From positions 1 through 60,160 of the forward strand of contig JAGMDA010000001.1 in the NCBI GenBank assembly GCA_023128935.1: a stretch of DNA of 60,160 nt, written 5' to 3'. Every line of letters begins with the position of its first letter. The stretch's first letter is position 1. Shown in pieces: positions 3,233 to 58,956 of the stretch. The notes under the pieces are model-generated. The model saw only the letters and a program-made list of their open reading frames with translations, had not been told where the DNA came from and ran no database searches. The position numbers were made by a program, and so were the translations under genes. The DNA is from Candidatus Eiseniibacteriota bacterium. GTDB lineage: Bacteria; Eisenbacteria; RBG-16-71-46; CAIMUX01; WJJG01.

Positions 3233-4696
3233 ATGAAACTTTGGGACAAGATAGTCGCAGCGATGGGTGCGATGGTGAAGTCTTGGGTAGGCGGGCCCCA
3301 GCTTTGGCTGGATGACGACCTCACTGCCCAGGAGAAGGAGCGGCGGTCCTTCTACGACAAGGCTTGGACTTACTACCGAGGCCACCACAAACAGCCACTG
3401 AAGGTGCTGGCTGGCCAGCCCAACGACAACGTCATCCTGAACTACTCTCGCCGAGTAGTCGATAAGGGTGTCGCCTTCCTCTTTGGCAAACAGCTCATCT
3501 GGGAGCTTCCCCTGCAGACGGAGCAGCCAAAGAAGCCGGGCGAGGACGGAGAAGAGACCGAGTCCCCCGCAGAACTGGCGCTTCAGGACCTTTGGAAGTC
3601 TGAGGAGCAGATGATGATTTTCCTCACGGACCTGGCGACAACCGGAGGCGTTTGCGGTACTTTCTACCTTCAGATCGTCGTCAAACATGACGAAACTCTC
3701 CGACTAGTAGCTCTCGATCCTTATCTGGTTCTTCCCAAGTTCAACCCCGACGACGTCGAGGACGTGTGGGCCTACCACCTTCGCTGGCGGGCAGGCGACA
3801 CAGCTCGGCGGCAGATTTGGCTACGGGATACCTTGCTGAACGAGGACACCGACACGGAAGAGCCGGATGAAGAAGGCTACTGGACCTACTGGACCGAAGA
3901 GAAAGACGGCAGGGGAGTCTGGCGGCTAGTGGTCGAAGCGCAAGAATGGCCTTACCCGTTCGCCCCGTTCATTCACGGCAAGAACCTCCCGAATCCTCAC
4001 TCCTTCTACGGGAGGAGCGACCTGGAGGACGCCGACCTCAACGACACGATCAACTTCGTGGCAGGGAACACCAACCGACTGATCCGCAAGTGTGCCCATC
4101 CGCTCATCTGGGGCTACGGCTTCCAGCGAGGCGAGATGCGGGTCTCCCCTGGTTCAGCAGTCGTCTCTACAAATCCGGACGCGAACCTTGAGGTTCTCCA
4201 GCAGATTGGCGAGGTGAAAGTCGCCTCGACCTTCCTGGACCGGATGATAAGCGCTTATTCCCAGGTTACCTGCACGCCGGACCTTGACCCCGCAAACATG
4301 CGACTGGGAGCGGCCTCCGGCTTTGCCCTGCGGGTGCTCTACGGGGACTTGACGGAGAAGACCGGACTGAAGCGATCGAGCTACGGAGCGGCTCTCATCG
4401 AGACCATGCGTCGGTGTGCTTTCATCCTGGGCTTCGGCGAGGACCATCGGGTCAAGCTCACCTGGGAAGACCCTCTCCCCGTGGACGAGCGGGAGGAAGT
4501 GGAAGGCCTGGGGTTTGACGCCAGCCAGAAACTAGTCAGCAAAGAAACCCTAGCGACGAAACGTGGCTACGACTGGGAGGTAGAGCAGAAACGTCAAGAG
4601 AATGAGGGGAAAGGCGACGACAACATCGGTCTTGCCCTTCTTGACGCCTTCGAGACGGGACACCGTGGCGTCACTGATCAAGAAGACGAAGACTAA
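3233..4696 (+). CDS. Portal protein (SPP1 gp6-like)
   Basis: 487 residues, the usual size for the SPP1 gp6/DUF1073-related portal family. It forms the dodecameric DNA entry ring at the capsid vertex. Family-like stretches include the early RSFYDKAWTYYRGHH, the RSDLEDADLNDTIN region and a helical, acidic C terminus. Position between terL and the MuF head gene is the standard order. The last ~40 residues are charged, as expected for the crown. Confidence 0.93.
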   Translation: MKLWDKIVAAMGAMVKSWVGGPQLWLDDDLTAQEKERRSFYDKAWTYYRGHHKQPLKVLAGQPNDNVILNYSRRVVDKGVAFLFGKQLIWELPLQTEQPKKPGEDGEETESPAELALQDLWKSEEQMMIFLTDLATTGGVCGTFYLQIVVKHDETLRLVALDPYLVLPKFNPDDVEDVWAYHLRWRAGDTARRQIWLRDTLLNEDTDTEEPDEEGYWTYWTEEKDGRGVWRLVVEAQEWPYPFAPFIHGKNLPNPHSFYGRSDLEDADLNDTINFVAGNTNRLIRKCAHPLIWGYGFQRGEMRVSPGSAVVSTNPDANLEVLQQIGEVKVASTFLDRMISAYSQVTCTPDLDPANMRLGAASGFALRVLYGDLTEKTGLKRSSYGAALIETMRRCAFILGFGEDHRVKLTWEDPLPVDEREEVEGLGFDASQKLVSKETLATKRGYDWEVEQKRQENEGKGDDNIGLALLDAFETGHRGVTDQEDED

Positions 4697-4701
4697 GCTA
4701 G

Positions 4702-6960
4702 ATGCCTACCGCAGATCAGCAGGCAGCGGCGTTCAAGCAGGAGCTTCTTCGCTCTACGCGGGACGTTGAGCGCCAGATGGCCCAAGAGTGGGCGACGGCG
4801 TGGAAGGCTATCGGGGAGCGGATCGACGAAGCGACCGCCAGGATAGCCGACGACCAGGCGAAACTGGAGGAACTCAAGCGCTCTCTGATGGGAGTGCGGG
4901 GGGACCGAAGAACCGAGGTCGAAGCCACAATTGCTCGCCTGGAGACGTCTTTGCCTGGTTTGCGGGCAGCCGTTGTTCGGGACCAGGAATGGCAGGACGA
5001 GATTGCCGTAGAGATAGCCCAACTATCCGGTCAGATGGCGGCGTGGGAGGAAGATGCTCAGCAACGCCTCGTCGAGCTTGCCCAAGAGCACGGAGTTGCG
5101 CTAGGTTTGGCGGGCTGGCGGGACAGAGCTAACAACCTGCGTTACGAAGTAGCGGCAAAGACGCACGGCGTCATGGATGTCGTTTGGGGCCCGCACAAGG
5201 TTGGAGTACCTGGCAAAGGTGAGTGGGCGATCGCCAAGAAGCAGGGACTCTACACAACTACCGCCAACGGTCAGCGACTATATGCTCAGGAGCGGGCCGA
5301 CGCCGAAGAACTCATCTCATACCTCAAAGCAGGCGGCGAGTATGGGACCCCGGAGTTTTCCCGATTGTTGGGCTATACTGAAGGGGAAATCCAAGAGTAT
5401 CAGGCATTTCTTCATGCGCAGAAGATGGCGGCAGTAGGGAGCGCGGTCGGTTGGGGCAGACCGAGCATGAAGGCGATCGAGCATCTCGTCGGGCGCACAA
5501 TGGACGGAGGCATTCTGGCCAAGCGGTTCGAGCGACTAGGTGAGAAGACCTGGGCCGGCATGCGGTCGGAGTTGGTGAAGGGCATGGCGCTCGGCCAAAA
5601 TCCCCGAACAGTAGCCAGAGCCATGCAGGTGAAGTTCGGTCGCGGTCTGACCGAAAATCTCGTACTTGCTCGGACGGAGATGATTCACTCCTACCGCCAA
5701 GCGTCCTTGATGACCTACCGAGAGAACGAAGACGTCGTCCAAGGCTACCGGTGGTGCGCAGAATTGGGGCCCCGGACGTGTCAGGCCTGCATTTCTCTGC
5801 ACGGGACCGAGTTCACCCTCCATAACGCAGAACGCTCGATACGCAAGAGAGAACAGGAGCTGAGCGGCGAAGAACGCGAAGCTGTCGCGGGTGGCATGAT
5901 GACCGGCGGGACAGCCGGAATGGACGCCGTGCCGAGTTCCTGGGCCAGGGAAGGGCTTGAAGCCGCATCGGACGCCAACCACAACGAGACCCCGTGGGAG
6001 TGGTTCGACAGGCAGAAGTACGCGAAGCAGATTGAGCTTGTTGATCCCGTTGTCCTGGCGGGGCTTCGGGGCGGTGCTGTTCAGAAAAGTCAGCTCTTCA
6101 AGCGAGTAGACGGTAAGCTTGTGCCCCGTACTCTGGGAGAATTTAGCAACAGCACGAGGCTCAAGGAGATCTATGCCGCTGAGCAGCAACGCCGGAAAGA
6201 AGACCCTCTGTGGTGGAGAACGCGGTGCGACCTGGGCAGGGCAAACGCGGTTGTCGGGCGGGAAATGAGGTTCAGAACGGGCCAACCTTTCGAGTCCGCC
6301 TGGTCCGGAGAAACGATCGTGAAGATGGCGGGAAGCTACGCTGGCATGAAGGCGTGGGACTGCGACATCTACATTTCAAAGAGCACCGCCGATTTCGAGA
6401 GGCCTGATCCGCCTCAACGGATAGGAAAGTACAGCATCAAGGGGAAACCGCCTAAGTCCAGGGAGGAGAAAGAGGCCAAGTATATCTCGGTGATGATCCA
6501 CGAGCTGATGCACTCCTACACAAAAGGCACAAGCCCTACTGCGTACAGCTCGAATATTGACTGGGAGGAGGGGACAGTCGAGGCGATGATGAGAGTCCTT
6601 CGGCCCACTGTTGTCCGGGACACGGGAATGGGCGCTCACATCTCAGACGCGGCTTGGCGGGCCAAAGATAAGAGCAACGGCTATAACAGATATATTCGGG
6701 GACTAGAGGCGATAAGGAAGAGGCAAAACGTCAGCCGAGCCAACTTCTACGGGACTCTCTTCAGTACCCGCTTGCCGGATCGCCGATGGGAGGCATTCAA
6801 GTTCGACCCTGGACGCGTAAAAGCCCTAGCGGCCAAGAGACAAGAAAGTCTTGACTTGATAGGGGTGGAGGCGGAGAAGTACGACAGGAGGGGTAACCCG
6901 ACGTCCCGGATGTTCTGGGGCATGGAAGACCTTGAAGACGCTTTGGCGGGGGAGTGGTGA
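4702..6960 (+). CDS. MuF-type minor head protein with C-terminal HELMH peptidase-like domain
   Basis: 752 residues. The first ~130 are coiled coil. Residues ~320-375 hold the MuF/SPP1 gp7 signature (ARTEMIHSY, then WCAELGPRTCQACISLHG), which usually sits inside the capsid near the portal. The extra C-terminal part carries HELMHSY at ~600 followed by WEEGTVEAM, an HExxH-plus-glutamate arrangement of zinc peptidases. MuF proteins with toxin-like tails are known from polymorphic-toxin surveys. Here the tail could be an injected effector or a head-maturation peptidase. It is paralogous to the first half of the 7156 protein. The MuF call is firm; enzyme activity is inferred. Confidence 0.88.
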   Translation: MPTADQQAAAFKQELLRSTRDVERQMAQEWATAWKAIGERIDEATARIADDQAKLEELKRSLMGVRGDRRTEVEATIARLETSLPGLRAAVVRDQEWQDEIAVEIAQLSGQMAAWEEDAQQRLVELAQEHGVALGLAGWRDRANNLRYEVAAKTHGVMDVVWGPHKVGVPGKGEWAIAKKQGLYTTTANGQRLYAQERADAEELISYLKAGGEYGTPEFSRLLGYTEGEIQEYQAFLHAQKMAAVGSAVGWGRPSMKAIEHLVGRTMDGGILAKRFERLGEKTWAGMRSELVKGMALGQNPRTVARAMQVKFGRGLTENLVLARTEMIHSYRQASLMTYRENEDVVQGYRWCAELGPRTCQACISLHGTEFTLHNAERSIRKREQELSGEEREAVAGGMMTGGTAGMDAVPSSWAREGLEAASDANHNETPWEWFDRQKYAKQIELVDPVVLAGLRGGAVQKSQLFKRVDGKLVPRTLGEFSNSTRLKEIYAAEQQRRKEDPLWWRTRCDLGRANAVVGREMRFRTGQPFESAWSGETIVKMAGSYAGMKAWDCDIYISKSTADFERPDPPQRIGKYSIKGKPPKSREEKEAKYISVMIHELMHSYTKGTSPTAYSSNIDWEEGTVEAMMRVLRPTVVRDTGMGAHISDAAWRAKDKSNGYNRYIRGLEAIRKRQNVSRANFYGTLFSTRLPDRRWEAFKFDPGRVKALAAKRQESLDLIGVEAEKYDRRGNPTSRMFWGMEDLEDALAGEW

Positions 6961-6961
6961 G

Positions 6962-7159
6962 ATGGAACGCAGACAGTTGCTTCGAGACATCTTGGCGCTG
7001 GTGGACGCCAGCTCTAGGGCAAAGGCGCAGAAGGTTCTGTCTCGGCAGGAGCGTTGGATGGAGAAGTATCCGGACGACACCGAGATTGAGGACTGGGGAG
7101 AGATGCTGGCCATGCTGGTTGCTGCTTATCGTTCGATGAGACGGGAGAAACTCTCATGA
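6962..7159 (+). CDS. Small WGEML-motif paralogue, copy 1
   Basis: 65 residues starting at the ATG at 6962, one base after the MuF gene stop. It shows RDIL near the N terminus, RWMEKYPDD in the middle and DWGEMLAML near the end. The same pattern recurs in the genes at 9397 and 46412. It sits between two HExxH genes and overlaps the second by ATGA. Helical and charged; possibly an adaptor or inhibitor for the neighbouring peptidase-like proteins, which is inference only. Confidence 0.7.
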   Translation: MERRQLLRDILALVDASSRAKAQKVLSRQERWMEKYPDDTEIEDWGEMLAMLVAAYRSMRREKLS

Positions 7160-9180
7160 TGACTGACCCGCTTGACGTGGGCGACATCGACGTTCAGGAC
7201 CATCCGTCCGGACGTTGCACATTTGTGCCTATCCTTCGTGCCTGGAAGGACCTGGGCTTCGAAGGCGTGGAAGACTTGGACCGGCACGAGACGGGCCTGG
7301 AGTGGCTCGGTCGTCAGGACTACGACACCATCACGAAGGTCATGCATCCCGCAGTCTACGAGGCGTGGCGGGCGGGTGCGCTACCGAGTAGCCGCTTGGT
7401 TACTCGCCACTATGACAAGGACTTTGGCTGGACTGTGCGACCGGCGACGCTGAAGAGTTTCGGATACGAAGAATTCTCCAACTCCGTGAAGAGCATGGAC
7501 ATGGCGGAGTGGGGCTGGCAGGCCGAGGACGTCCGAGAGCGAAGAGCTACGGACCCCAGATGGTTTCGCACTCGTCATCACCTAGACCAGACCAACTCGA
7601 TCATCGGACGAGAGCTTCGCTACGCCACTGGCTACTCCTGGAAGTCGAGGTGGAACGGAGAGCTAACGATTAGAGAAGCCGTTGGCTACGGCGGAATGAA
7701 GGAGTGGAGCTGCAGCATCGTCATTGCCGGTGACATTGCGCATCTTGGGGTGTCGCAGGAACAGTGGGCTCAGGGGAAGTACCACACAACGCTCATGCAC
7801 GAGCTCTTGCACTCTTACTCCCCTGGCGTCTCCCCAGAGCTCTACGGACAGAGGATTGAGTGGGAGGAGGGCATCGTGGAGGGTATGACGCGCATGATGA
7901 GACCCGCTCTGTTTGGGGCGCAGGGGATAGGCGGGAGGTCGGCGATTTCGGACGCCACCTGGGAGAGGATAGACGGGACTCACGGCTATAACAAGTTCAT
8001 CAGAGCGCTGGAAGTAGCCAGAGACATGCAAGGAGTGAGTCGTCAAAAGTTCTACACGGAGATGTTTGTGACTCCCCTGTACGACCGCTTCGACAAGGCC
8101 TTTTCGTGGAAACCCGAAGAGGTATCTGGCCTGAGGAACCTCTACGACAGTTTCGGGATGGAAGAAGGACTCAACCTGCTTCGCCAGTACGGGGCGGGAG
8201 ACGTGATCGACTCGTCCTCGGTGTTCTTCGGGAGAGGACTCTACGCAACGGAGCGACCGACAGGAATGCCTTCCCCTGGTCTGGAATCTGCTTTCGCCAG
8301 GGCAGCCTCAACAGGGAACGTGACGCTGGACAAAGCTCTTGCTGCGGGCGGTGTAAACGAGTGCTTCTTGGTTCACCACGAAGGTGACGGGTATGGCCTC
8401 TGGAAGGCGGGCGTTTCTGCAGAAGATCTCCTGGGCGTAGGCTATTCTGGCGACTACGCTTATCCGAGCATGGCCGGGAGCATACTTCACGGCGAAGGAA
8501 CTAGCCACCGCAATGAGGTCACGGCATATCAGCTTTCGGAATTGCTGCTGCCTGGTGAAGGCTTGGTTCCGGAGACGGTTCTCTTGGCAATGAGAGGCGA
8601 GGAGGGTTCTAGCCAGTTCTTCATCGAGAACGCCTTCTTGCAGAAGGACGCCGAATATCAGGAGGGGCTTGAGCTACTGAGGGCAAACCGGCGACGGATT
8701 GACGCGACCATTGCGCTGGATTTCATCCAAGACCAACACGACAGACACCACGGCAACTGGATCTACGGCGAAGACGGCACGTTCTACGCAATCGACAACG
8801 GATTCGCTCTGTGGCAGGAGAGCCCTGAGCACCAGATGGGATCTAGCTGGTTGCAGTCGGAGGCTCGGCGGGCGATCACACAAGAGGAAGGCACGTGGGC
8901 GTTCAATCAAGACCTACTGATCTCGTGGCGGGACGTTAGCAGGAGCGCTTTTGACGAGGCGTTGGCCTTCAGAAACTCGGCAGAGCAGGATGCAGCCTGG
9001 CGGCGTTTCGAACTCATCAGGAGTCAGGGCTCGTTGGATACGTGGTCAAGGGGAGGGAAAAGAGTCCTAACGAAAGAAGAGCGGGAGTCACAGGCAAGGA
9101 TGGAAGAGGCGAGACCCTCCTGGGCGGCGGACATGATAGGAAAGTGGGATGAGGAGGCGGAGCAATGGGTATGGTGGTGA
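7156..9180 (+). CDS. HELLH peptidase-like domain fused to PI3/PI4-kinase-like domain
   Basis: 674 residues. The first ~330 are paralogous to the C-terminal part of the MuF protein: a shared EWL/FxRQ...LRxGA region, RxRT/W.RTR, and HELLHSY at ~215 followed by WEEGIVEGM. The rest resembles bacterial PI3/PI4-kinase-fold enzymes: RNEVTAYQLSELL near residue 454, a catalytic-loop motif DRHHGN with D529 and N534, and the metal motif IDNG with D547. The MuF core is absent, so it looks like a partial duplication that gained a kinase. Its place in the head operon suggests a virion or injected protein. The kinase target cannot be told. Confidence 0.75.
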   Translation: MMTDPLDVGDIDVQDHPSGRCTFVPILRAWKDLGFEGVEDLDRHETGLEWLGRQDYDTITKVMHPAVYEAWRAGALPSSRLVTRHYDKDFGWTVRPATLKSFGYEEFSNSVKSMDMAEWGWQAEDVRERRATDPRWFRTRHHLDQTNSIIGRELRYATGYSWKSRWNGELTIREAVGYGGMKEWSCSIVIAGDIAHLGVSQEQWAQGKYHTTLMHELLHSYSPGVSPELYGQRIEWEEGIVEGMTRMMRPALFGAQGIGGRSAISDATWERIDGTHGYNKFIRALEVARDMQGVSRQKFYTEMFVTPLYDRFDKAFSWKPEEVSGLRNLYDSFGMEEGLNLLRQYGAGDVIDSSSVFFGRGLYATERPTGMPSPGLESAFARAASTGNVTLDKALAAGGVNECFLVHHEGDGYGLWKAGVSAEDLLGVGYSGDYAYPSMAGSILHGEGTSHRNEVTAYQLSELLLPGEGLVPETVLLAMRGEEGSSQFFIENAFLQKDAEYQEGLELLRANRRRIDATIALDFIQDQHDRHHGNWIYGEDGTFYAIDNGFALWQESPEHQMGSSWLQSEARRAITQEEGTWAFNQDLLISWRDVSRSAFDEALAFRNSAEQDAAWRRFELIRSQGSLDTWSRGGKRVLTKEERESQARMEEARPSWAADMIGKWDEEAEQWVWW

Positions 9181-9389
9181 CGTTCTGGAGAACCGGAAAT
9201 ATCGAGAAGCCGCAGAAGGAAGAAGGTAGGGTAGTTCTGGCGGGTGACGGCGTATCTGGGCCAAAAGATCTCGTTGAACTACTCTTCCCCAAGGGAGTCC
9301 CCAAGAAGGCGGAGGCCATCCGGCCCGTCCTGCGGGGAGCTCCTCTGCGCTTCGACGGGAGATATCTACGAGCAGAAGTGAAGGAATGA
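9165..9389 (+). CDS. Hypothetical protein, 74 aa
   Basis: Starts inside the end of the kinase-fusion gene behind GAGGAGGCGG. Basic, with a GPKDLVELLFPKG stretch. No family recognised. Lies between the fusion gene and the second WGEML paralogue and is probably translated with them. Confidence 0.6.
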   Translation: MGMVVTFWRTGNIEKPQKEEGRVVLAGDGVSGPKDLVELLFPKGVPKKAEAIRPVLRGAPLRFDGRYLRAEVKE

Positions 9390-9396
9390 GGATGAG

Positions 9397-9633
9397 ATGA
9401 CGAAAGTGAAAACCAGGGGACGACTTGAGCGAGACATCTTGAAGTTGACGAGGCAGGACCCGACCCTCGGCTTGCCTACTCGCCGGACGATAGAGAACAG
9501 GGAGACGCAAGTCAGGCAGGTGCGGCGTCGGCACACTCGCTGGATGGAGAGGAATCCGCGGGACGAAGGAATGCGGAGTTGGGGCGAGATGCTCGTTATG
9601 CTAGAAACATCGTTTCAGCACGGAACACCCTGA
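9397..9633 (+). CDS. Small WGEML-motif paralogue, copy 2
   Basis: 78 residues with LERDIL at residues ~10-15, RWMERNPRDEG and SWGEMLVML towards the end, matching the genes at 6962 and 46412. The extra N-terminal residues are basic. Last gene of the P1 transcription unit and close behind the HELLH/kinase gene. Function unknown. The repeated pairing with peptidase genes is the main clue. Confidence 0.72.
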   Translation: MTKVKTRGRLERDILKLTRQDPTLGLPTRRTIENRETQVRQVRRRHTRWMERNPRDEGMRSWGEMLVMLETSFQHGTP

Positions 9634-9737: not shown

Positions 9738-9962
9738 ATGAGCGGAAAACGCAGAGCGATTGTTTACTACCCAGGCGAACCGAGGGAGGACCTGGACACA
9801 GCCTTGATGAGATGCCCGGGCTTTTATGCCGCAGGTTTCGACTTTCCCGACAACAGGCGAGAGATCGTCATTGATGTCAGAGGAGTGGGCGAGACATCCC
9901 ACATTCTCAGCCTGATGCCGGATGATGCTATCCTCGGTCTGAGCATGGTGATAGAAGAATGA
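9738..9962 (+). CDS. Hypothetical protein, 74 aa
   Basis: First gene behind promoter P2, with GGGGGGAGAG before the ATG. Short alpha/beta-looking sequence with no known motif. It overlaps the sulfotransferase start by ATGA, so the two are probably coupled. Confidence 0.7.
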   Translation: MSGKRRAIVYYPGEPREDLDTALMRCPGFYAAGFDFPDNRREIVIDVRGVGETSHILSLMPDDAILGLSMVIEE

Positions 9963-10588
9963 AGTGCGTCGTCGTTCTCGGCACGGAGCGCAGTTGCACG
10001 TCAGCAGTTGCTGGTGTCTTGCACCTTCTTGGTTGTCCTATGGCCTCCGAGGAGTTCATCATCAAGGCGCATCCGGAATTCAACGCCAAGGGGCATTTCG
10101 AGGACAGGCGCTGGCACGAGCTGAACCGCAGAGTCAGCCGACAGCTCGGCCTCCACAAAGAGCAGGAAGCGGAGTACAAGGCGCTGATTGCGGCTTGCAG
10201 GCGAGAGCCGATTTGGGGCGTGAAAGACCCGTACTTCGTCAACATGGGCGGCCTGGTATTTTCTCTGATCGAGGACGACCTCTACTTCATCGCCGTGCAT
10301 CGCCGGTTTGACGCGACTGTGGCTAGTCTTCAGCGACACCACGATGGGGGGAAAGGGACGCACCTCGTCCGGGCGCAAAGCGTGGGGATCGAGTGGAAGA
10401 AGCGATTCTTCGACATGCTTCATTGGGTCTCGCCTCTCTACCACCTGCAGGCGGAGCGGCTGATGACAGACACGGAGCAAGAAATCCAAGGAATTCTTAA
10501 CTTTCTGGGCTGGTCGCCGAAAGAGGACCTACAGAAAGCGATCGACTTTATCGACCCGACACTCTACCACTTTCCGAGGCTAAAGTGA
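9959..10588 (+). CDS. Sulfotransferase-family protein
   Basis: 209 residues. The N terminus has a P-loop-like PAPS-binding segment (VVVLGTERSCTSAVAGVL), and WGVKDPYF plus AVHRRFDATVASL match the 3'-phosphate-binding region of sulfotransferases. It would move sulfate from PAPS to a glycan or tail/head protein. It overlaps both neighbours by four bases, the next being a glycosyltransferase, so the two may decorate the same target. Rare in a structural gene block. Confidence 0.75.
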   Translation: MKCVVVLGTERSCTSAVAGVLHLLGCPMASEEFIIKAHPEFNAKGHFEDRRWHELNRRVSRQLGLHKEQEAEYKALIAACRREPIWGVKDPYFVNMGGLVFSLIEDDLYFIAVHRRFDATVASLQRHHDGGKGTHLVRAQSVGIEWKKRFFDMLHWVSPLYHLQAERLMTDTEQEIQGILNFLGWSPKEDLQKAIDFIDPTLYHFPRLK

Positions 10589-11280
10589 ACATTGTTCTAG
10601 CCTCGATTTTCCGCAACGGCGGCGACTACGTGAATCGGTGGGCGAACCAGGTTCGGAACCTCGCCGGGGCTCTACCGGACGGCCACGAGCTAGGTGTTCT
10701 GATCGCCGAAGGGGACAGCACCGACAACACGTGGGTGCAGCTAAAAGGGTTCGTTCGCATGTTCGGTGGTAGGCTAGTCAAGCTGGAGCATGGCGGCCTG
10801 GAGTGGGGGAGTGTTGACGATGTGTGCCGGTGGCGGCAGGTGACGAACGTCTGGAACGCTCTTTACGGCCACCTCGACGACATCGAAGGCGATGCTCTCA
10901 TTCACGTCGAAGCTGACCTGATTTGGAAACCTGAGACGATGCGGCGTTTGCTTCGCCAGCTGGAGCGAGTACCCGCAGTTTCGCCTATGGTCTGGCATCG
11001 GCGGCCTGGGCGGTTCTATGACACCTACGGCTTCCGGAAAGATGGGGTGAGATTCATTGGCCAGTCTCCGTACCATCCGGCGTTGGAGAAGTGGAGGTCA
11101 GAGGTGAACAGGCAGACGGGCCTGGTGAAAATCGACACGGCGGGCAGTTGCTTGGTCATGCGCATGGAGGTAGCGAGGAAGGTCTGGTTTGACTCGGACA
11201 CGTGGCATCCGGGCCCCTCAATTTACGAGCAGGGAGCTAGCCTTTGGCTAGACACGCAGGTCGCAGTCACGCATCCGTAG
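10585..11280 (+). CDS. Glycosyltransferase (GT-A fold)
   Basis: 231 residues from a GTG start overlapping the sulfotransferase stop. The sequence opens with a Rossmann-like strand and NGGDYVNRW, continues with EGDSTDNTW, and has an acidic HVEADLIW that fits the DxD-type metal/sugar-nucleotide site. The acceptor is unknown; it may be a virion protein or host surface glycan. Sits between head genes, in the same unit as the scaffold and capsid. Confidence 0.75.
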   Translation: MNIVLASIFRNGGDYVNRWANQVRNLAGALPDGHELGVLIAEGDSTDNTWVQLKGFVRMFGGRLVKLEHGGLEWGSVDDVCRWRQVTNVWNALYGHLDDIEGDALIHVEADLIWKPETMRRLLRQLERVPAVSPMVWHRRPGRFYDTYGFRKDGVRFIGQSPYHPALEKWRSEVNRQTGLVKIDTAGSCLVMRMEVARKVWFDSDTWHPGPSIYEQGASLWLDTQVAVTHP

Positions 11281-11288
11281 GGGGAAAG

Positions 11289-11579
11289 ATGGCGCAAAGA
11301 ATTAGTCACGCAGACCGGAGAGCGACCAAGCCGCTCGTTGTCACCAGGGAACAGCTTGACGTTTTGCTGTCCAGATATACGCTCGGATGGAGATGGGCAG
11401 AAGACGCGATAGGAGAGTTATGGCGGAACGCCACGCCGATTCCACAACCTCGTGGAATGATAGAACGACGGATGGTCCTACCCTCCCAATTGCGGGTGTG
11501 GGTGCAGGACGTCGGAAAAAGAGGCGGTTTTGATCTTAGTCTGATGCGTATGAGGCCAACGGTCCGACTGCCCAAGTAA
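11289..11579 (+). CDS. Hypothetical basic protein, 96 aa
   Basis: The start at 11289 is chosen because GGGGAAAG precedes it; an earlier in-frame ATG lies inside the glycosyltransferase gene. Arg-rich, helical, no known motif. Position just before the scaffold gene suggests a minor head or assembly role, without proof. Confidence 0.6.
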   Translation: MAQRISHADRRATKPLVVTREQLDVLLSRYTLGWRWAEDAIGELWRNATPIPQPRGMIERRMVLPSQLRVWVQDVGKRGGFDLSLMRMRPTVRLPK

Positions 11580-15667: not shown

Positions 15668-16843
15668 ATGAGAATTTTGTTCATGGCGAATGCTCCCTGG
15701 TGCGGCACAGGGTACGGTATTCAAGGGAGTCACCTCGTGCCGAGGCTACAGGCGCAAGGCCACAAGCTGGCCTACTTCGCCTTCTATGGCCTCAAGGGAG
15801 GAGTGCTAAAGGTAGGGGATACGCCGATCTTCCCGCCTGGCCTGGACCAGTGGGGAGGGGACATCCTGGAAGCCCACATGGAGGCGTTCAAGGCAGATAT
15901 ACTGATCACTCTGCTGGACGTTTGGGTCACAGACCACTTCGGGCAGATGGCGCAGAAGTGGGGCTGGGACTGGTTGCCTTGGTTCCCCATCGACCAAACG
16001 CCGACGCCAGAGTTGATTCTGGAGCGACTGGAGGGTTGCACGAGAGCGGTTGTCTACTCCCACTTTGCGGAGAAGGAGATGGCAGAGACGAAGTTCGCCG
16101 ACCGTGTTCGCTACGTGCCGCACGGCGTAAATCGGGAGATCTTCAAGCCAGGCAGCCAACGCGAAGCGCGCAAGCGGGTTGGTCTGGACCCAGACCGGTT
16201 CATCGTCGGCATGGTCGCAGCTAACAAGGGCTATCCGGACCGCAAGGCCTTCGCTCCTCAGTTTCTCGCATTCAGCGAGCTGAGGAAGAAACACCCTGAG
16301 GCATTGCTCTACCTCCACACGGTGATAACGACCGCGCATGGCGGCCTGAACCTGCTTAAGCTGGCGGAGCGATGTGGCATTCCAGAAGACTCTATCGCTT
16401 ACTGTGACCAGTACCAGCGGACAATCGGCATGCCAGCCGAAGCAATCGCGGATACCTACAGAGCAATAGACGTTCTGACCTCGGCCTCGTTAGGCGAAGG
16501 ATTTGGGCTTCCGATCATCGAAGCGCAGGCCTGCGGAACGCCGGTGGTAGTGGGGAACTGGACGTCGATGCCGGAGCTGGTGGTCAATGGGCGACTGATC
16601 GAGAAGAACACGCCGTTCTTCACTCCCCTGTTCTCGTGGGTGTTCATTCCGGACTCCAGAGAGTTGGCGGAGACGTACGAAAGCTTGTACGACGCCAAAC
16701 ACAGCTTTCCCCAGACATGGGCGGCCAAGGCAGATGCGGGAAGCAGAGCCATGGGGCGCTTTGACTGGGACGCGATCGCCGAACAGTGGGGAAGTGTGCT
16801 AGAGGAAGTGGAGATCGAACGTGGTGAACGAGCTAGAGACTAG
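15668..16843 (+). CDS. Glycosyltransferase family 4 (GT-B fold)
   Basis: 391 residues, standard GT4 length. The N-terminal Rossmann half has GTGYGIQG; the C-terminal half has VGMVAANKG and the donor-site motif SLGEGFGLPIIEAQACGTPVV with the EX7E pair. It moves a sugar from an NDP-sugar. It interrupts the tail module between the completion genes and overlaps the next gene by 23 bases, so it is transcribed with virion genes. A role in tail or head glycosylation is inferred. Confidence 0.9.
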   Translation: MRILFMANAPWCGTGYGIQGSHLVPRLQAQGHKLAYFAFYGLKGGVLKVGDTPIFPPGLDQWGGDILEAHMEAFKADILITLLDVWVTDHFGQMAQKWGWDWLPWFPIDQTPTPELILERLEGCTRAVVYSHFAEKEMAETKFADRVRYVPHGVNREIFKPGSQREARKRVGLDPDRFIVGMVAANKGYPDRKAFAPQFLAFSELRKKHPEALLYLHTVITTAHGGLNLLKLAERCGIPEDSIAYCDQYQRTIGMPAEAIADTYRAIDVLTSASLGEGFGLPIIEAQACGTPVVVGNWTSMPELVVNGRLIEKNTPFFTPLFSWVFIPDSRELAETYESLYDAKHSFPQTWAAKADAGSRAMGRFDWDAIAEQWGSVLEEVEIERGERARD

Positions 16844-34333: not shown

Positions 34334-35206
34334 TTAGTATCCTCCGACCCAAGTCCAGTCGTCCCCACCCTTGAACATGACGACTTGCTGCATGAGCATA
34401 TATGCCTGTTGTGGGTTCACGGCCTCTTCCATCAGGACGTTGATGTCTCTGCCCTCGTCTGCGAAGTACTCCGCCAGCATATCGCGGCTGTATCGGCCAA
34501 CGAAAGCAAGCTGGTAGAGCGGTTCGCCGGAGCGAGGGGCCTTGAATTTCTCGAAGGTGTAGATGAAGACGACGTAGGTCACGTCCGTGCCGTTGACGGT
34601 GTTCACCAGCAAGAAGTTGTGAGCACCCTCCCAGTGGAGGTCCGATTCCTCTTTGCTCAGCGCAGTATACTCCTCGTCGTTGAAGGCCACAGCGTATTCG
34701 GCGGTCAGCAGCTTGCCGTCCTCCGAACGATGTAGGCTAACGGCGACGATCTCCAGGCAGGTGTTCTTCGCAACCAGCTCTGACCACTCGACCATGTCGG
34801 CGAGCAACTTGCTGTCTTTCCGCTGGAGCTTCTTCGCGGCGATGATGTCCACGGTCCAGGTGTAGGACGAAACAGCGGTCTCTTGCGTCCAGGCGATCGC
34901 CTTGGGTAGCAGCCCAAACTGAGCGATCAGAGCGATAGCCAGGATCAGAAGGGCCAGCTTCTTGAACAACCCTCGTGGCAGATCGATAACCACGTGGGTA
35001 GGCCCGGATGGAAGCGCTTCCAGGACGGCGTATCCCTCACCGTCCGACAAGGACCCGGATGGCACGACCACGTCCTCATACTTGACGGGAGAACTTCCCG
35101 TTGCTTCCGCGTTCGCAAGCTCTGCGTAGTTGGTCTCCCCAACGTTCTCCGTGGGGATATCGGCTGACTTGCCCTTAGGCTTCCAGCCCAGTTTCTTCAA
35201 GCTCAT
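34334..35206 (-). CDS. Single-pass membrane protein, partner of FtsH-like protease
   Basis: 290 residues. Charged N-terminal ~85 residues, one strong membrane segment (LALLILAIALIAQFGLL) near 93-110, then a ~175-residue mixed alpha/beta domain. Start overlaps the stop of the FtsH-like gene by four bases, so the two are made together. It may anchor or regulate the protease, like HflK/C or another adaptor, but shows no clear SPFH match. One copy of the 14-bp palindrome lies in its coding DNA. Confidence 0.7.
   Translation of the reverse strand: MSLKKLGWKPKGKSADIPTENVGETNYAELANAEATGSSPVKYEDVVVPSGSLSDGEGYAVLEALPSGPTHVVIDLPRGLFKKLALLILAIALIAQFGLLPKAIAWTQETAVSSYTWTVDIIAAKKLQRKDSKLLADMVEWSELVAKNTCLEIVAVSLHRSEDGKLLTAEYAVAFNDEEYTALSKEESDLHWEGAHNFLLVNTVNGTDVTYVVFIYTFEKFKAPRSGEPLYQLAFVGRYSRDMLAEYFADEGRDINVLMEEAVNPQQAYMLMQQVVMFKGGDDWTWVGGY
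35009..35022. promoter_or_regulatory. Perfect palindrome TGGAAGCGCTTCCA (copy 2)
   Basis: Identical to copies at 9707 and 52597 but inside a gene, where it encodes LEALP. May be chance here or a real binding site. Confidence 0.3.
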
Positions 35207-36897
35207 TTCTCCTCCTCCTCTTTTCTTGCCGCTTTGATGGCGGCGAATAGATCGGCGACATCCTCGCCGAGAAGCTCGTGGTACTCAACTAGCGCTTCTG
35301 CCAGGCCGTGTACCAGATCGGCGTTGGCGTCTAGAAGGTCGGCCATGTCAGCCATCGTGCTGTTGTAGAACTTGCCGATGACAACTCCCAAAGCCTCCCC
35401 TACTTCTGGTTCCGACTGCGGCATGCCACACGACTTCCCTGCCATTCCAGGCCCACCCACCGAGATGAGCGCGGGCGGCGGACCGAACATGCCCTGATTG
35501 ACCATCAAGTGAACAAGCCGACAAACGTGGGCCAGGTCGCCTCCTGCGGAGGCCATTCGCTCGCCGAGGAACAGCTCCTCAGCCACGATACCAGCCAGAG
35601 AGATCTGAACCGCGGAGATCAGGTCGCTCTTCGTCTTCGTGTACTCCGTTCGGGTAGGCGCTGGCATGACGTGCCCCAACGCTCTACCGTAGCGGACGAT
35701 ACTTGCCGAAGATATCCGCAACCGTTCTGGTGCTAGCAGGTGGATAGCGACGGCGTGACCGGCCTCGTGAACAGCCAGTCGATGGGCATCGTTATCAGAG
35801 AGCGGAAGCGGCTGTTTTAGGCCCAAGGCCAGCTCTGCGATGACGTGTCTCCAGTCCCAGTAGCCTGCTTCTTTGCGTCCTTTCTGGAAGGCCAAAGCTA
35901 ATGCTTTGTAGACGGCTTCGGTAATGAACGCCGGTGTCTGCCCTACAACGTCAGCTGCCATCTTTGCGGCGGTCATTTCCGGTCCGTGGTCTATTCTTTC
36001 CAGGTAGAGGTCCAGGATCGACTCAACTGCCTCGTGGTGGGGCAAGTCGATGTTGATGATGTCACCCAGGCGACCCGGACGGGTCAGCGCGGCGTCTAGC
36101 GTTTCGGAAATGTTCGATGATCCGATGACCAAGACACGAGGCCTCTGCCAGGCGGGAGTCTTGCCAAAGAGTCCGTAGACTTTCTTCTTCAGCCTCCAGA
36201 TCTTCCCCTTGGCCTCTCGCAGTCCGTCCAGCTCGATCAGGAGGGTTGTCAGGAGGTTGCCTCCCATCCCACCCATCCCTGCCATGCCCATCCCACCCAT
36301 CTGCATGCCGGGGCCCGAACGAGAGCGACCGATAGCGTCGATTTCGTCCAGGAACAGCACCGCGGCCCCGTACTGTCCGGCGAATTTCCGAGTCTTGCGG
36401 AAGACGGCGGACATCTTGAGTGGCGAGATTCCCACGAAGGTTCCCCGCAACGACGCACAGTCGATGGACAAGAACGGCATGTCACCAACAGCCGCAAGGA
36501 TCTTGATCAAGTAAGTCTTGCCTGTCCCGGGCGGTCCGGTTAGCAGGATGCCGCTAGGGGGACGTCCTCCGGCCTTCTCGAACTCGTCGTATCCCTTCAG
36601 CAGATCTAGGTAGGTCTTCATACGTTCGACCAGCTCTGGCGCTCCCCGATAGTCGTCCCAAGTGTAGTCCAGGTCTCCAGGCAGGTAAAGCTCCTGACGG
36701 GTGCGTCCTGCCAGGTAGTAGAACATGATGAAGAACTGGAACATCATCATGAAAGCCATCTGTCCCATACTAAAGGCGAGATTGAGGATGCCTAGCACGA
36801 TGTCTACGGCGACCACTGACAGAATAGCGAAAACAGCACAGACTGCCAGGATGATCAGCTTGTCTCTGTGCCGTGCGAACCAATATTGAGCTTTCAC
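35203..36897 (-). CDS. FtsH-like membrane AAA+ zinc protease
   Basis: 564 residues. Two membrane segments in the first ~62 residues, AAA+ domain with Walker A GPPGTGK at 121-127, Walker B LFLDEID, an SRH-like TRPGRLGD, and an M41 peptidase part with HEAGH at 377-381 and a downstream GGDLAHV that supplies the third ligand. A complete set of FtsH features, slightly shorter than bacterial FtsH (~610-650). It would pull and degrade membrane or soluble proteins at the inner membrane. Rare in phages. Overlaps genes on both sides. Confidence 0.92.
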   Translation of the reverse strand: MKAQYWFARHRDKLIILAVCAVFAILSVVAVDIVLGILNLAFSMGQMAFMMMFQFFIMFYYLAGRTRQELYLPGDLDYTWDDYRGAPELVERMKTYLDLLKGYDEFEKAGGRPPSGILLTGPPGTGKTYLIKILAAVGDMPFLSIDCASLRGTFVGISPLKMSAVFRKTRKFAGQYGAAVLFLDEIDAIGRSRSGPGMQMGGMGMAGMGGMGGNLLTTLLIELDGLREAKGKIWRLKKKVYGLFGKTPAWQRPRVLVIGSSNISETLDAALTRPGRLGDIINIDLPHHEAVESILDLYLERIDHGPEMTAAKMAADVVGQTPAFITEAVYKALALAFQKGRKEAGYWDWRHVIAELALGLKQPLPLSDNDAHRLAVHEAGHAVAIHLLAPERLRISSASIVRYGRALGHVMPAPTRTEYTKTKSDLISAVQISLAGIVAEELFLGERMASAGGDLAHVCRLVHLMVNQGMFGPPPALISVGGPGMAGKSCGMPQSEPEVGEALGVVIGKFYNSTMADMADLLDANADLVHGLAEALVEYHELLGEDVADLFAAIKAARKEEEEK

Positions 36898-37400: not shown

Positions 37401-37440
37401 ATTAAAGCACATCTGCACGCCTTTGTCAACGTCTGTCCCT
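37401..37440 (-). promoter_or_regulatory. Phage promoter, conserved family (P6)
   Basis: Minus strand: AGGGACAGACG, TTGACA (37424-37429), 17-bp spacer with a CTGCA-like core, TTTAAT (37401-37406). Drives the gene at 37373 and the FtsH-like pair. It overlaps the last codon of the upstream gene. Confidence 0.88.
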
Positions 37441-38539
37441 AGAGCAGTCCTCGATGCAGGTGAGAACGATGCCCCTTGAACTCTATCTGGTCCCAGTACT
37501 CCGGACCGGTCCGAGCCAAAATAACGGGCGCTTTCGTGGCGTTTTCGACCCTTGCTATGAAGTCAAGCGATACTTGCGATAACTGTTCCGGTAGCTGACA
37601 CCCTAGGTCTTCCATGTTCAGCCAGTCTAGGTGCGTCACCGCAATGGCGGTTGGCCCACTGAGCTGAGAGGCTAGCTGCAGCTCTTCGAAGGAGACCTCG
37701 AACGGACGCTCGATGCCTCCTGCTTCTTCTCCCGCAGACCCTCCGCTCGTTTGTCGGATAACCTCAAGCGGTCGGCCTGCTCGCTCACAGACCTGCTTCC
37801 AGGTCAGCTCCCATCCGGCTGATGGCCCACTGTTGCCGGGGACGCGAGTTGGTCTCGCCGTGACAACCATCACGACGTTCTGCACATCCCTCCAGCTCAA
37901 TCCGGCGTCTGATAGAGCTCCCATCGCCGTGACGTTTCGGCTAGTGCACCAGGGGTAGTAACCATGGTCCAAGCTGAGCATCGTGCCTTGGCTTGCTTCT
38001 ACCAGGATACTTCCGGTCCCCCACTTTAAGAGCGCTCTTGTTACGTCTTTCAGGATGACGCCAGGGAGCTGCTTCAGCAAATGGGCTACGTCGTTGGCCA
38101 GGAGGCAAGATCCGTCTCGCCTTACCTTTGCGGCCATGGTAGCTCCGACTCCCAGATGTGTCGAGCCTCTCTTCGTGGCGGCGTCCATGCCCGACTTCCG
38201 CAGACGCTCGGTAATCATGGCGCAGTGCTTGTCTACCCAAATCTCTCGGCCCAGTTTGCCCCACCCCTTCCACTCCCGTGCCAGACTGAGAGGATTGAAC
38301 GTCATTCCAGGGGCTAGGATTGAGATGGCCGTATCCGCGTTGTCCGACGCTGTGGCGCTGGGGACGATGTGGTAACAGAAATTCTCCTCATGCTTCGTAC
38401 GTACTCGGTGCTCGGCGTTTTCTCCACCGGTCCGAACGTAGAAGTCGTAGGGATAGTTGTCCGCCAGCCACAGAGCTACCTGACCCTTTCCTTCGTCGCC
38501 GTACTGACCGCCAACCACCACGTCTACTTGCTTGTTCAT
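37439..38539 (-). CDS. Adenylosuccinate synthetase family enzyme (PurZ/PurA-like)
   Basis: 366 residues, shorter than bacterial PurA (~430) and near phage PurZ or archaeal PurA. P-loop GGQYGDEGKGQ with D15, GGENAEH with the histidine, GSTHLGVGA, EASQGTMLSLDHG.YPWCTS and a late THLDWL (base-specificity region). PurA joins aspartate to IMP. PurZ joins it to dGMP on the way to 2-aminoadenine (Z) DNA. As I recall, classical PurZ replaces the P-loop aspartate, which is kept here, so this may be PurA-like or an early PurZ0-like form. Last gene of the replication operon from promoter P7. Family is firm, substrate open. Confidence 0.88.
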   Translation of the reverse strand: MNKQVDVVVGGQYGDEGKGQVALWLADNYPYDFYVRTGGENAEHRVRTKHEENFCYHIVPSATASDNADTAISILAPGMTFNPLSLAREWKGWGKLGREIWVDKHCAMITERLRKSGMDAATKRGSTHLGVGATMAAKVRRDGSCLLANDVAHLLKQLPGVILKDVTRALLKWGTGSILVEASQGTMLSLDHGYYPWCTSRNVTAMGALSDAGLSWRDVQNVVMVVTARPTRVPGNSGPSAGWELTWKQVCERAGRPLEVIRQTSGGSAGEEAGGIERPFEVSFEELQLASQLSGPTAIAVTHLDWLNMEDLGCQLPEQLSQVSLDFIARVENATKAPVILARTGPEYWDQIEFKGHRSHLHRGLL

Positions 38540-40439: not shown

Positions 40440-40895
40440 CTAGTTCCCTATCGATTTGCAAACCCCAGTGCTCCCAAAACCTCGACTTTCACGTTCGGAC
40501 TTGTCCAGGTCGTCGATGCACTCTACGGGAAAGACGCACGCCGGAATGAGGATAAGCTGAGCGAACGCTTCCCCCTTCTCGACCTTGACGATTTCTTGGC
40601 TGTTATGCTTGTCTGCGATATACCAGACATAAACGAACAACTCGCCCCGATATCCGGCGTCGATAACGCCAGGGAGAACGATGAACCGACCTCCTGCGTT
40701 GGCCCAGGAGCGGGCAATAACCAGTCCCCAAAAGCCCATCGGGATTTGAACCCGAACATCCGTAGGGATCGAGGCCATCCGGCCTGGGGTAAGCCAGGCG
40801 TCGTAGCTTGCGAGAAGATCGTAGCCCACATCGCCTATCAGCTTTGGGGCGCTCAATTGGGGAGACGTGGTTCTGAGAGTGTGAGTCGTTTTCAT
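40440..40895 (-). CDS. dut: dUTPase
   Basis: 151 residues from the ATG at 40895; the longer frame upstream lies inside the polymerase gene. The five family motifs are visible: GDVGYDLLAS, ARSWANAGG (variant of RSSLA), LPGVIDAGYRGEL, GEAFAQLIL and ESRGFGSTG. Hydrolyses dUTP to dUMP, keeping uracil out of DNA and feeding dTMP synthesis. Start overlaps the polymerase stop by four bases. Confidence 0.9.
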   Translation of the reverse strand: MKTTHTLRTTSPQLSAPKLIGDVGYDLLASYDAWLTPGRMASIPTDVRVQIPMGFWGLVIARSWANAGGRFIVLPGVIDAGYRGELFVYVWYIADKHNSQEIVKVEKGEAFAQLILIPACVFPVECIDDLDKSERESRGFGSTGVCKSIGN

Positions 40896-42607
40896 TCCTG
40901 TGCCTCCTCTGTTGGCAGATACACCGTGACGTCCACCTTCATGGCGATCCGAGGGTTGACTAGTTTGTGAATCCGTTCGGGGACTGCATCTTCCATGATC
41001 GTCACTGCCCGGTGGCAAGCCTCGTCGATGTCGCCTTCCATGACTTCTATGAGGATAGAGTCGTGGACCTGAGACACGATTCGAACCTGAGGCATCTCGA
41101 CGTGAATGCCGAGCATGGCCGTCTGCATGACGCAAGCCACCGAACCCTGCACTAGCTGATTGAAGGCTTTGTAGAGTTTGAACGCTCTGTCGGACGGGGA
41201 GACGAAGCGGCGACGGCCCGACGACAGAACCAAGAATCCTCTCTTGGCCCATCGTGCCTCCGCAGCCTTGGACACCTGCCGGAATCGAGGGAATCGCTGA
41301 CGGTGCAAAGTCAGCACTTCCTTGGCCTTCTCCTGGGATAGCTTAGCCGTGTGTGACAGACTCCCTGGGCCTGCCCCATAGATAGTCGCGAAGTTGGCCG
41401 ACTTACCCAAGAAGCGGTTCTCCTTGGCCTTCTCGTCGCCGTACATCGCTCTGGCAGTCTCCAGATGAGGATCAGCATCTGGTTCCTGGAAGATTTTGGC
41501 CATCACGACCTCACCGGCGTAGATGGCGGCTAACCGCAGCTCTGCCTGCGCGTAGTCGAGCGAGACTAGAGCCTTGACGCCTCTGCCAGGGATGAATAGC
41601 TTCATGCCTCGTGGGATAGCTTGCACGTTGGGATGTTTGCAACTCAGACGCCCCGATACTGTCCCTCCGGGCTTGAATAGCGGGTGAACTCGTCCTTCTT
41701 CGTCAGCTTGGTCTCGGATGCCTACCAGCCACGTACCCAACGCCTTCACGAGGTGCCTGCCTCGAAGCACATCCTCTATGACGTCGGCGACTTCCCCTTG
41801 GTGATAGGCCTGGATCTCCTGCAGCACGCCCACGTCTAGCTTATCCTTCCCCCCTGCCGTCTTTGCGATCAGAAGGCATTCTTGAGAGAGCAGATACTTG
41901 CGCAACCCAACGTTGTCCGTTGCTTTCAGGATTTTCACAGACATCAACCGCTTCTGGATCTCTGCCAGCTCCGCCTTATAGTCGTCGACCGTTCTGTTGA
42001 TCGTGGTCAGGTCGATGGCCATGCCGGTCACCTGCATCTGAGCCGCTAGCAGAATGAAGTCCCCCTCGGCCTGCAGGTAGGCCTGAGAGTAGATCTTTTC
42101 CGCCTCTCCGTGGATGTGCTCCACCAGGAGAAGGGTGTTGCGGGCGTCGTCCTTGTTGTACTCGATCACCGTCTCGGCGTCTAGCTTGGCTAGGCCTTTG
42201 CGTCGCTTCTTCATGCCCTGCCAGCCTTCGTTCCCGATGCCGTAGTGTCGGCAGAGTTTGCCGAGCGATACGCTCTCCCTGTCGCCGGTGTGCCTGGCCA
42301 TGACCATCGTGTCGAAGATTCGGCCCCGGCAGATATCCTCCGTCAGCACGCCGATGCGCAGCAAGTGAGGGAGGTCGAAAGCGGCGTTATGGAAGACTAG
42401 CCAGTCTGGTCCTTGGGCTAGCTCCCGTAGCCAGTAGAAGAGCTCCGGCGTTGTGCAGGGCTGAGAGAAAAGATCTCTCATGCTGACGTTCATCGCTTCT
42501 GCTTGCACAACGCCTTCGTCATCACGCCACGCAGCGGCCACCGTCAGCAGGTGGTCGTTGTAGGTAAGGCCTGTAGTTTCGATATCCAGCGCCAGGAATC
42601 GGGGCAT
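40892..42607 (-). CDS. DNA polymerase I family (3'-5' exonuclease + polymerase)
   Basis: 571 residues. Exonuclease motifs LDIETTGL, FHNAAFDL and YNKDDARN occupy the first ~160. Polymerase motif A is LDYAQAELRL, motif B KENRFLGKSANFATIYG, and motif C QVHDSILIE with D516 followed by serine where most family members have glutamate. No 5'-3' exonuclease domain, as in phage replicases. Family A enzymes called DpoZ replicate Z-DNA in some PurZ phages, so this one is worth comparing with them. Confidence 0.94.
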   Translation of the reverse strand: MPRFLALDIETTGLTYNDHLLTVAAAWRDDEGVVQAEAMNVSMRDLFSQPCTTPELFYWLRELAQGPDWLVFHNAAFDLPHLLRIGVLTEDICRGRIFDTMVMARHTGDRESVSLGKLCRHYGIGNEGWQGMKKRRKGLAKLDAETVIEYNKDDARNTLLLVEHIHGEAEKIYSQAYLQAEGDFILLAAQMQVTGMAIDLTTINRTVDDYKAELAEIQKRLMSVKILKATDNVGLRKYLLSQECLLIAKTAGGKDKLDVGVLQEIQAYHQGEVADVIEDVLRGRHLVKALGTWLVGIRDQADEEGRVHPLFKPGGTVSGRLSCKHPNVQAIPRGMKLFIPGRGVKALVSLDYAQAELRLAAIYAGEVVMAKIFQEPDADPHLETARAMYGDEKAKENRFLGKSANFATIYGAGPGSLSHTAKLSQEKAKEVLTLHRQRFPRFRQVSKAAEARWAKRGFLVLSSGRRRFVSPSDRAFKLYKAFNQLVQGSVACVMQTAMLGIHVEMPQVRIVSQVHDSILIEVMEGDIDEACHRAVTIMEDAVPERIHKLVNPRIAMKVDVTVYLPTEEAQE

Positions 42608-45830: not shown

Positions 45831-46415
45831 CTATGCGGGTGCGATAAGTGATTCGAGTGCGCTTGCACAACGATCGGCCAGCGTTCCCCACGCTAGCCCC
45901 AAGATAAGCCCAAACAGATGAGCTAGGTTGAGCGGCAGGACCGAAATCGCCAGCCAGACGGCTAGAATAAAGGCCGAGCCGAAATTCTTTCTCCGCAGGC
46001 TTGTGGCCAGACTGACAGCAGCCAAGGCGAACATCGTGCCGGATGCGCCAATGAGCGTCCGACCACAGCAGGATACCGCACAAGCTACCCAGACGCTAGC
46101 GAAGAGGAAGAACACGCAGAAATCGTGGTGCCCGACCTGAATTTCGTAGAGTGCTCCCAGGAGCACCAGGAAGGGCAGGTTGCACCACAGGTGGCCAGCG
46201 CTCACGTGCCAGAACGGTCCGGCCACCAGCATCAGCGGGCCAGACGGACGGGGCAGCAGGTAGAACAAAGCTGCCAGCAGTACCCCGAAACTCAGCGATA
46301 GCCAGGGGAGTCGCCCCACGGGCGGCCTCCGGGGCCATCTTGAGGGGCTGAGCGGCGGTTGATGCGGAAGGCCGAGCGCCAGTTGGCGGGACGGCGACGG
46401 GTGACGTGAGGTCAT
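45831..46415 (-). CDS. Rhomboid-family intramembrane serine protease
   Basis: 194 residues with about six membrane segments. Rhomboid hallmarks in order: WHVSAGHLWCNLPFL, the catalytic IGASGTMFAL (serine in GASG), and NLAHLFGLILGLAWG with the catalytic histidine. The start at 46415 overlaps the stop of the WGEML paralogue by ATGA. Very unusual in a phage; it could clip host membrane proteins during infection. All key residues are present. Confidence 0.87.
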   Translation of the reverse strand: MTSRHPSPSRQLALGLPHQPPLSPSRWPRRPPVGRLPWLSLSFGVLLAALFYLLPRPSGPLMLVAGPFWHVSAGHLWCNLPFLVLLGALYEIQVGHHDFCVFFLFASVWVACAVSCCGRTLIGASGTMFALAAVSLATSLRRKNFGSAFILAVWLAISVLPLNLAHLFGLILGLAWGTLADRCASALESLIAPA

Positions 46416-58875: not shown

Positions 58876-58878
58876 TTT

Positions 58879-58952: not shown

Positions 58953-58956
58953 TCCA

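What the first reader, a model, noticed from the sequence alone, without database searches (positions are those of the whole stretch)
4702..9180. Head-module pair: MuF-HELMH protein and its HELLH-kinase paralogue
The tail of the MuF head protein was duplicated into a second gene, which lost MuF and gained a PI3/PI4-kinase-like domain (DRHHGN, IDNG). MuF tails are known as variable toxin-like modules. A capsid-linked HExxH plus kinase pair may be a set of injected effectors that act early on the host.
Basis: partly seen in the sequence, partly recalled or inferred. Interest (0 to 1): 0.85.

Follow-up and report, generated by a model that had tools for sequence, protein, structure and literature searches.

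The report
Phage head-protein gene split in two
In this phage the gene for a minor head protein (MuF) is cut in two inside its conserved domain, and each half carries its own predicted enzyme tail (a zinc peptidase on one, a zinc peptidase plus a kinase-like domain on the other); this suggests that a broken-off toxin tail can be kept as a working gene, so one virion might deliver two effectors.

Summary
In detail: two adjacent genes share a 37%-identical block with HExxH motifs, the first carries MuF, and the second ends in a PI4K-like kinase domain. The stated history is wrong. Gene 2 is not a copy that lost MuF: it starts with the missing end of the MuF domain. Against a profile of 11 unsplit MuF proteins, gene 1 covers positions 121-254 and gene 2 covers 252-344. 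A relative in IMG/VR (gene 1 N-terminus 73% identical) is split at the same place, but its gene 1 has an unrelated, ADP-ribosyltransferase-like tail and its gene 2 has lost the kinase by an out-of-frame deletion. In 17 of 17 comparison phages both motif halves lie in one ORF. Gene 2 is under purifying selection (dN/dS 0.14; MuF-end piece 0.07, like the portal). The zincin family, undescribed in the libraries searched, also occurs in MuF proteins of other metagenomic phages; its model has zincin topology. Best reading: a MuF polymorphic toxin whose original 3' half was displaced by a swapped-in tail and kept as an active gene, so a virion may carry two effector tails. Virion presence, injection and enzyme activities are inferred, not shown.

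The parts
3233..4696 (+). portal gene (SPP1 type), context
   Evidence: PF05133 E 1.2e-18
4702..6960 (+). gene 1: N-terminus, MuF core without its last segment, swapped-in zincin tail
5431..5826 (+). MuF core in gene 1 (residues 244-375), with C360-x-x-C363
   Evidence: positions 121-254 of the MuF profile
5938..6828 (+). gene 1 tail block (residues 413-709), paralogous to gene 2 29-326, with HELMH (6499-6513) and WEEG
   Evidence: 37% identity, E 5e-57
6962..7159 (+). small ORF S1 (65 aa); its stop overlaps the start of gene 2
   Evidence: paralogue of B; third family member at 46415-46627(-)
7156..9180 (+). gene 2: displaced 3' half of the MuF gene, with zincin and kinase-like domain
7177..7455 (+). 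end of the MuF domain and post-MuF segment in gene 2 (residues 8-100), HPSGRC at 7201-7218
   Evidence: positions 252-344 of the MuF profile, E 2.7e-16; dN/dS 0.067 for residues 1-95
7441..8145 (+). zincin domain of gene 2 (about residues 96-330), HELLH at 7798-7812, WEEG at 7861-7872
   Evidence: 9-row alignment, model pTM 0.71
8341..8823 (+). PI4K/SCO1664-like kinase domain of gene 2 (about residues 396-556): K417, E454, D529, D547
   Evidence: TIGR03843 E 3.3e-6, alignment, PDB profile search
8977..9177 (+). C-terminal segment of gene 2 (residues 608-674), still present out of frame in the sibling after its kinase deletion
9165..9389 (+). small ORF A, overlapping the end of gene 2
   Evidence: conserved in the sibling
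9397..9633 (+). small ORF B, related to S1
   Evidence: alignment score 87, shuffles at most 56

Best explanation
The pair is one MuF polymorphic-toxin gene broken in two. In an ancestor of this phage and its sibling, a new tail with its own stop codon was inserted into the MuF gene between RTCxxC..HGTEF and HPxGRC. The original 3' half (MuF end, post-MuF segment, zincin, kinase-like domain) was displaced downstream and became gene 2, with its own start. The tail on gene 1 was later swapped (zincin here, an ADP-ribosyltransferase-like domain in the sibling). Inferred function: gene 1 is held at the portal inside the head, like SPP1 gp7. The conserved MuF end of gene 2 completes or docks on the gene 1 MuF domain in trans, possibly by restoring a CxxC/H-C metal site, so both tails enter the virion and are ejected with the DNA. 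In the host, the zincin would release the neighbouring domain by self-cleavage or cut host proteins, and the kinase-like domain would modify host targets. Shown: the split, the tail swap, the retention under selection, the domain types. Inferred: direction of events, trans-complementation, packaging, ejection, catalysis.
For: The two halves abut on the MuF profile, 121-254 and 252-344, in both phages, with gene 2 E-values 2.7e-16 and 8.3e-18 and no shuffled sequence below 0.07. 17 of 17 comparison MuF proteins have CxxC and H..RC in one ORF. Gene 1 matches the sibling at 73% to residue 382 and then has an unrelated tail, while gene 2 matches at 67%. Gene 2 has dN/dS 0.14, with 0.067 in its MuF end, like the portal's 0.080. 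MuF followed by a zincin of this family in one ORF exists elsewhere (L025), as does an unsplit MuF protein with another HExxH region (L010); this is the architecture expected before a split. A relative of the zincin is followed by an ADP-ribosyltransferase, PF03496 E 7.7e-24 (L030). The model has the order of elements described for zincin metallopeptidases of injected phage proteins (PMC5512222). Displaced tails are known in Rhs and CDI loci (PMC3967940, PMC4927057).
Against: Only one sibling is known (L004 and L005 are the same phage, 1 mismatch in 13,502 bases), so the direction of events is inferred from unsplit relatives. No integrase was found on the contig, whereas MuF toxins are reported from temperate phages (PMC5576092). 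The kinase is dispensable in the sibling. The immunity-protein idea for S1/B is weakened by a third copy at 46415-46627(-). No PDB fold match is significant. No virion proteomics exists.
Confidence: 0.6

Rival explanations
1. One reading: the gene 1 tail was duplicated into a new gene that lost MuF and gained a kinase; the pair are injected effectors.
For: The tails are paralogous; a kinase-like domain is only in gene 2.
Against: Gene 2 carries the MuF end that gene 1 lacks; the gene 1 tail is equally far (42%) from both gene 2 copies; the sibling has gene 2 but no zincin on gene 1.
Confidence: 0.1
2. Gene 2 is a silent orphan tail, a fossil or a reservoir for recombination, as proposed for Rhs and CDI orphans.
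For: Same position and orientation as Rhs/CDI orphans, and it retains part of the conserved region. The sibling copy lost its kinase by an out-of-frame deletion.
Against: dN/dS 0.14 over residues 1-365 and 0.067 in the MuF end; start codon overlapping the upstream stop in the window and purine-rich stretches before both starts.
Confidence: 0.13
3. The zincin is a head-assembly or head-processing protease rather than an effector; gene 2 is needed for capsid maturation.
For: Location in the head module; strong conservation of gene 2; no other head protease was recognised among the ORFs tested.
Against: The order portal, MuF, scaffold, major head protein is shared with Microbacterium phages that have no zincin; the actinophage maturation proteases downstream of MuF have no HExxH; the zincin also occurs with an ADP-ribosyltransferase behind it.
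Confidence: 0.15

Closest known systems
MuF polymorphic toxins (Jamet 2017, PMC5576092; Apk2, PMC12226406; Bxa, PMC11699363)
   Same: MuF gene directly after the portal, conserved N-terminus with swappable C-terminal enzyme tails (20% metallopeptidase, 14% ADP-ribosyltransferase), small ORF after the tail
   Different: The MuF domain itself is split over two genes, two tails coexist, a PI4K-like kinase domain is present (the word kinase does not occur in the main text of the Jamet paper), and no integrase is seen
Orphan Rhs-CT / CdiA-CT modules (PMC3967940, PMC4927057)
   Same: A displaced 3' end of the toxin gene lies downstream in the same orientation and still carries part of the conserved region
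   Different: Gene 2 has a start codon and is under strong purifying selection; its conserved piece looks structural; it sits in a phage head module
Zincin-like metallopeptidases (MPTases) of polyvalent proteins (Iyer 2017, PMC5512222)
   Same: N-terminal helix, three strands, helix with HExxH, helix with Glu; linked to ADP-ribosyltransferase and other effector domains in injected phage proteins
   Different: Own signature HExxH ... WEEGxVE; no match in Pfam, NCBIfam, PDB sequences or the phage records searched
SCO1664 family (TIGR03843), PI4K type II / FAM20-like kinases
   Same: Catalytic Lys, Glu, Asp and second Asp conserved; a profile of the domain with SCO1664 proteins matches PI4K2B
   Different: Fused to a MuF end and a zincin; far below the TIGR03843 equivalog cut-off; substrate unknown

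Membership tests
MuF polymorphic toxins | N-terminal MuF domain encoded just after the portal | tested here: met
   PF04233 E 2.3e-7, portal at 3233-4696; the domain is completed only by gene 2
MuF polymorphic toxins | variable C-terminal tail among close relatives | tested here: met
   73% identity to residue 382, then unrelated tails
MuF polymorphic toxins | small ORF (<150 aa) after the toxin gene | tested here: met
   S1 (65 aa) after gene 1; A and B after gene 2
MuF polymorphic toxins | small ORF is a specific immunity protein | tested here: inconclusive
   S1 and B are paralogues next to zincins, but a third copy lies at 46415-46627(-); Imm27 match only E 0.11
MuF polymorphic toxins | temperate phage | tested here: inconclusive
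   no PF00589 or PF00239 match on the 60 kb contig; the contig may be incomplete
MuF polymorphic toxins | tail is toxic | not testable with these tools
   needs expression tests
Orphan (displaced) toxin tails | downstream fragment carrying part of the conserved region | tested here: met
   gene 2 residues 8-100 = MuF profile 252-344
Orphan (displaced) toxin tails | usually no translation signals | tested here: not met
   ATG overlapping the S1 stop, dN/dS 0.14
Zincin metallopeptidases | HExxH plus a distal Glu on the next helix | tested here: met
   invariant in 9 sequences
Zincin metallopeptidases | zincin fold | tested here: inconclusive
   model has the right order of elements, pTM 0.71; best PDB match leukotriene A4 hydrolase, E 0.16; best viral match E 6e-5, an uncharacterised protein
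SCO1664 / PI4K-like kinases | Lys, Glu, catalytic Asp and metal Asp | tested here: met
   K417, E454, D529, D547 conserved with SCO1664 proteins
SCO1664 / PI4K-like kinases | score above the TIGR03843 equivalog cut-off | tested here: not met
   26.6 against 172.4 bits: related, not a member

The most novel reading that the evidence does not exclude
A split MuF protein that works in trans: the two gene products rebuild one MuF domain at the portal, perhaps sharing a metal site (CxxC from gene 1, H..C from gene 2), so each virion carries two different effector tails and can keep an old effector while trying new ones on gene 1.
Probability: 0.4. Interest if true: 0.78.

Novelty: new variant of a known kind. 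Interest (0 to 1): 0.62.

Why it matters
MuF toxins are thought to vary by replacing their tail; here the old tail was kept as a gene under selection, with the last part of the MuF domain attached. If the halves meet again in the virion, a phage could stack effectors instead of trading them, and the MuF fold could be studied as two separable pieces. It also gives a zincin family with a clear signature in metagenomic phages and a candidate PI4K-like effector linked to MuF, both testable in E. coli laboratory strains.

Tried and rejected
Single-sequence AlphaFold2 of gene 2 was useless (pLDDT 32). Pattern scans with single proteins found no relatives of the pair; only alignments did. G273/L032 was rejected: the ORF reads like a methylmalonyl-CoA mutase (by eye). 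Recent in-situ duplication was rejected on identities. An assembly artefact was rejected: the same split occurs in an independent contig whose gene 1 and gene 2 are about 70% identical. S1/B as specific immunity proteins was downgraded after the third copy, and ORFs downstream of the zincin in distant phages do not match significantly. The ADP-ribosyltransferase call for the L005 tail rests on motifs shared with a Bacillus phage SP-15 protein (R-G, S-x-S, E-x-E); Pfam and hhalign do not confirm it. The maturation proteases that follow MuF in actinophages were compared with gene 2 and have no HExxH.

Full report
What is there. The window is one whole 60,160-base contig of a metagenome-assembled genome. 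Its first part is a phage head and tail module: terminase, portal, MuF gene, scaffold, major head protein, tape measure. Gene 1 (4702-6960) follows the portal and has MuF (PF04233 E 2.3e-7). Gene 2 (7156-9180) shares a 37%-identical block with the gene 1 tail, E 5e-57. Both have HExxH, and gene 2 alone has DRHHGN and IDNG.

Gene 2 is the rest of the MuF gene. Gene 2 residues 10-99 align with the C-terminal end of short, complete MuF proteins of Microcystis phages (E 1e-10 and 9e-9). I built a profile from 11 unsplit MuF proteins. Window gene 1 matches positions 121-254 and window gene 2 positions 252-344; the sibling phage gives the same numbers; shuffled sequences give at best E 0.07. The break lies between RTCxxC..HGTEF and HPxGRC. 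In 17 of 17 comparison phages both halves of this motif are in one ORF. Gene 1 of the window has a faint copy of the post-MuF segment (profile 269-310, E 0.28) but lacks HPxGRC.

The sibling phage. L004 and L005 (IMG/VR) are the same phage, with the same gene order. Its gene 1 is 73% identical up to residue 382 and then carries an unrelated tail with ADP-ribosyltransferase-like motifs (R-G, S-W-S, E-G-E). Its gene 2 is 67% identical up to residue 367 and then lacks the kinase: residues 368-607 are gone and the last 66 residues remain in another frame. So the split is older than the two phages, gene 1 tails are swapped, and the kinase can be lost. The gene 1 tail of the window is 42% identical to both gene 2 copies, which are 68% identical to each other. 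It is therefore not a recent copy of its neighbour; it is an old copy or an import.

Gene 2 is probably not a fossil. Between the two phages dN/dS is 0.08 for the portal, 0.14 for gene 2 residues 1-365, 0.17 for the zincin and 0.067 for the MuF-end piece (synonymous sites are near saturation, so the ratios are rough). The MuF-end piece is as constrained as the portal, which suggests a structural role. The gene 2 ATG overlaps the stop of the small ORF before it.

The zincin. With an alignment of the three copies, a last scan of viral contigs found eight more distant loci, some of them from the same phage. The nine-row alignment has H, E, H and W-E-E-G-x-V-E invariant. Architectures: MuF followed by zincin in one ORF (L025; PF04233 E 7.5e-7), a weak MuF match (E 0.001) with zincin (L028), zincin followed by PF03496 ADP-ribosyltransferase (L030, E 7.7e-24). 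A more distant unsplit MuF protein with another HExxH region is L010. AlphaFold2 with these nine rows gives pTM 0.71 and mean pLDDT 68, with most of the core between 70 and 90: helix, three strands, helix with HExxH, helix with WEEG. This is the order of elements described for the zincin-like metallopeptidases of phage polyvalent proteins (PMC5512222). Foldseek against PDB lists leukotriene A4 hydrolase, selecase and other zinc peptidases, but none with E below 0.001; a viral model matches at E 6e-5. No significant Pfam, NCBIfam or phage-record match was found for this zincin.

The kinase-like domain. TIGR03843 (SCO1664 family) matches at E 3.3e-6 but far below its cut-off. Aligned with three SCO1664-type proteins, K417, E454, D529 and D547 are invariant; the profile finds PI4K type II at E 2.4e-8 and FAM20 proteins at E 0.003. 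No phage record or viral contig gave another copy.

Small ORFs. S1 after gene 1 and B after gene 2 are related (score 87, shuffles at most 56). In the sibling, B is kept after gene 2 but the ORF after the ART-like tail is unrelated. This looked like a toxin with its immunity protein, but a third family member lies at 46415-46627(-), in another region (E 5.6e-17). I leave the role open.

How it most likely works. MuF proteins such as SPP1 gp7 sit at the portal in one or two copies (PMC5576092), and MuF tails are proposed to be delivered to the host cell (PMC5512222). I infer that gene 2 docks on gene 1 through the split MuF domain, so that the head holds two tails. The zincin would act in the head or after ejection, either releasing the domain behind it or cutting host proteins; the kinase-like domain would modify host targets. 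None of these steps is shown.

Limits. My search for earlier reports of a split MuF gene covered open-licence papers only and found none.

Noticed in passing
window 37439-38539 (-) and 40892-42607 (-): PurZ-like adenylosuccinate synthetase (phrog_1211 E 9.5e-50, PF00709 E 3.8e-35) near a family A DNA polymerase with exonuclease; the phage may make 2-aminoadenine (Z) DNA.
   Followed up: partly
window 35203-36897 (-): FtsH-like protein, AAA ATPase plus Peptidase_M41 (PF00004 E 4e-24, PF01434 E 5.5e-19), encoded on the phage contig.
   Followed up: no
window 46415-46627 (-): Third member of the S1/B small-protein family, far from the MuF genes.
   Followed up: partly
window 9959-11280 (+) and 15668-16843 (+): Sulfotransferase-like and glycosyltransferase genes inside the head module; ORFs that look like the first two are also in the sibling L005 at 10008-11314.
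   Followed up: no
L030 1-1089: Zincin of the same family followed by an ADP-ribosyltransferase (PF03496) in one ORF of a metagenomic phage.
   Followed up: partly
L028 3835-6333: Large MuF-zincin ORF with a long middle region between the MuF part and the zincin that Pfam does not identify.
   Followed up: no
L044 3821-4675 and L045 3721-5001: Two Neferthenavirus phages (HerculesXL, Schimmels22) have similar unsplit MuF proteins without and with an annotated ADP-ribosyltransferase tail: a natural pair for tail gain or loss.
   Followed up: partly
window 58803-59033 (+): Three tRNA genes in a row: Trp, Asp, Pro.
   Followed up: no
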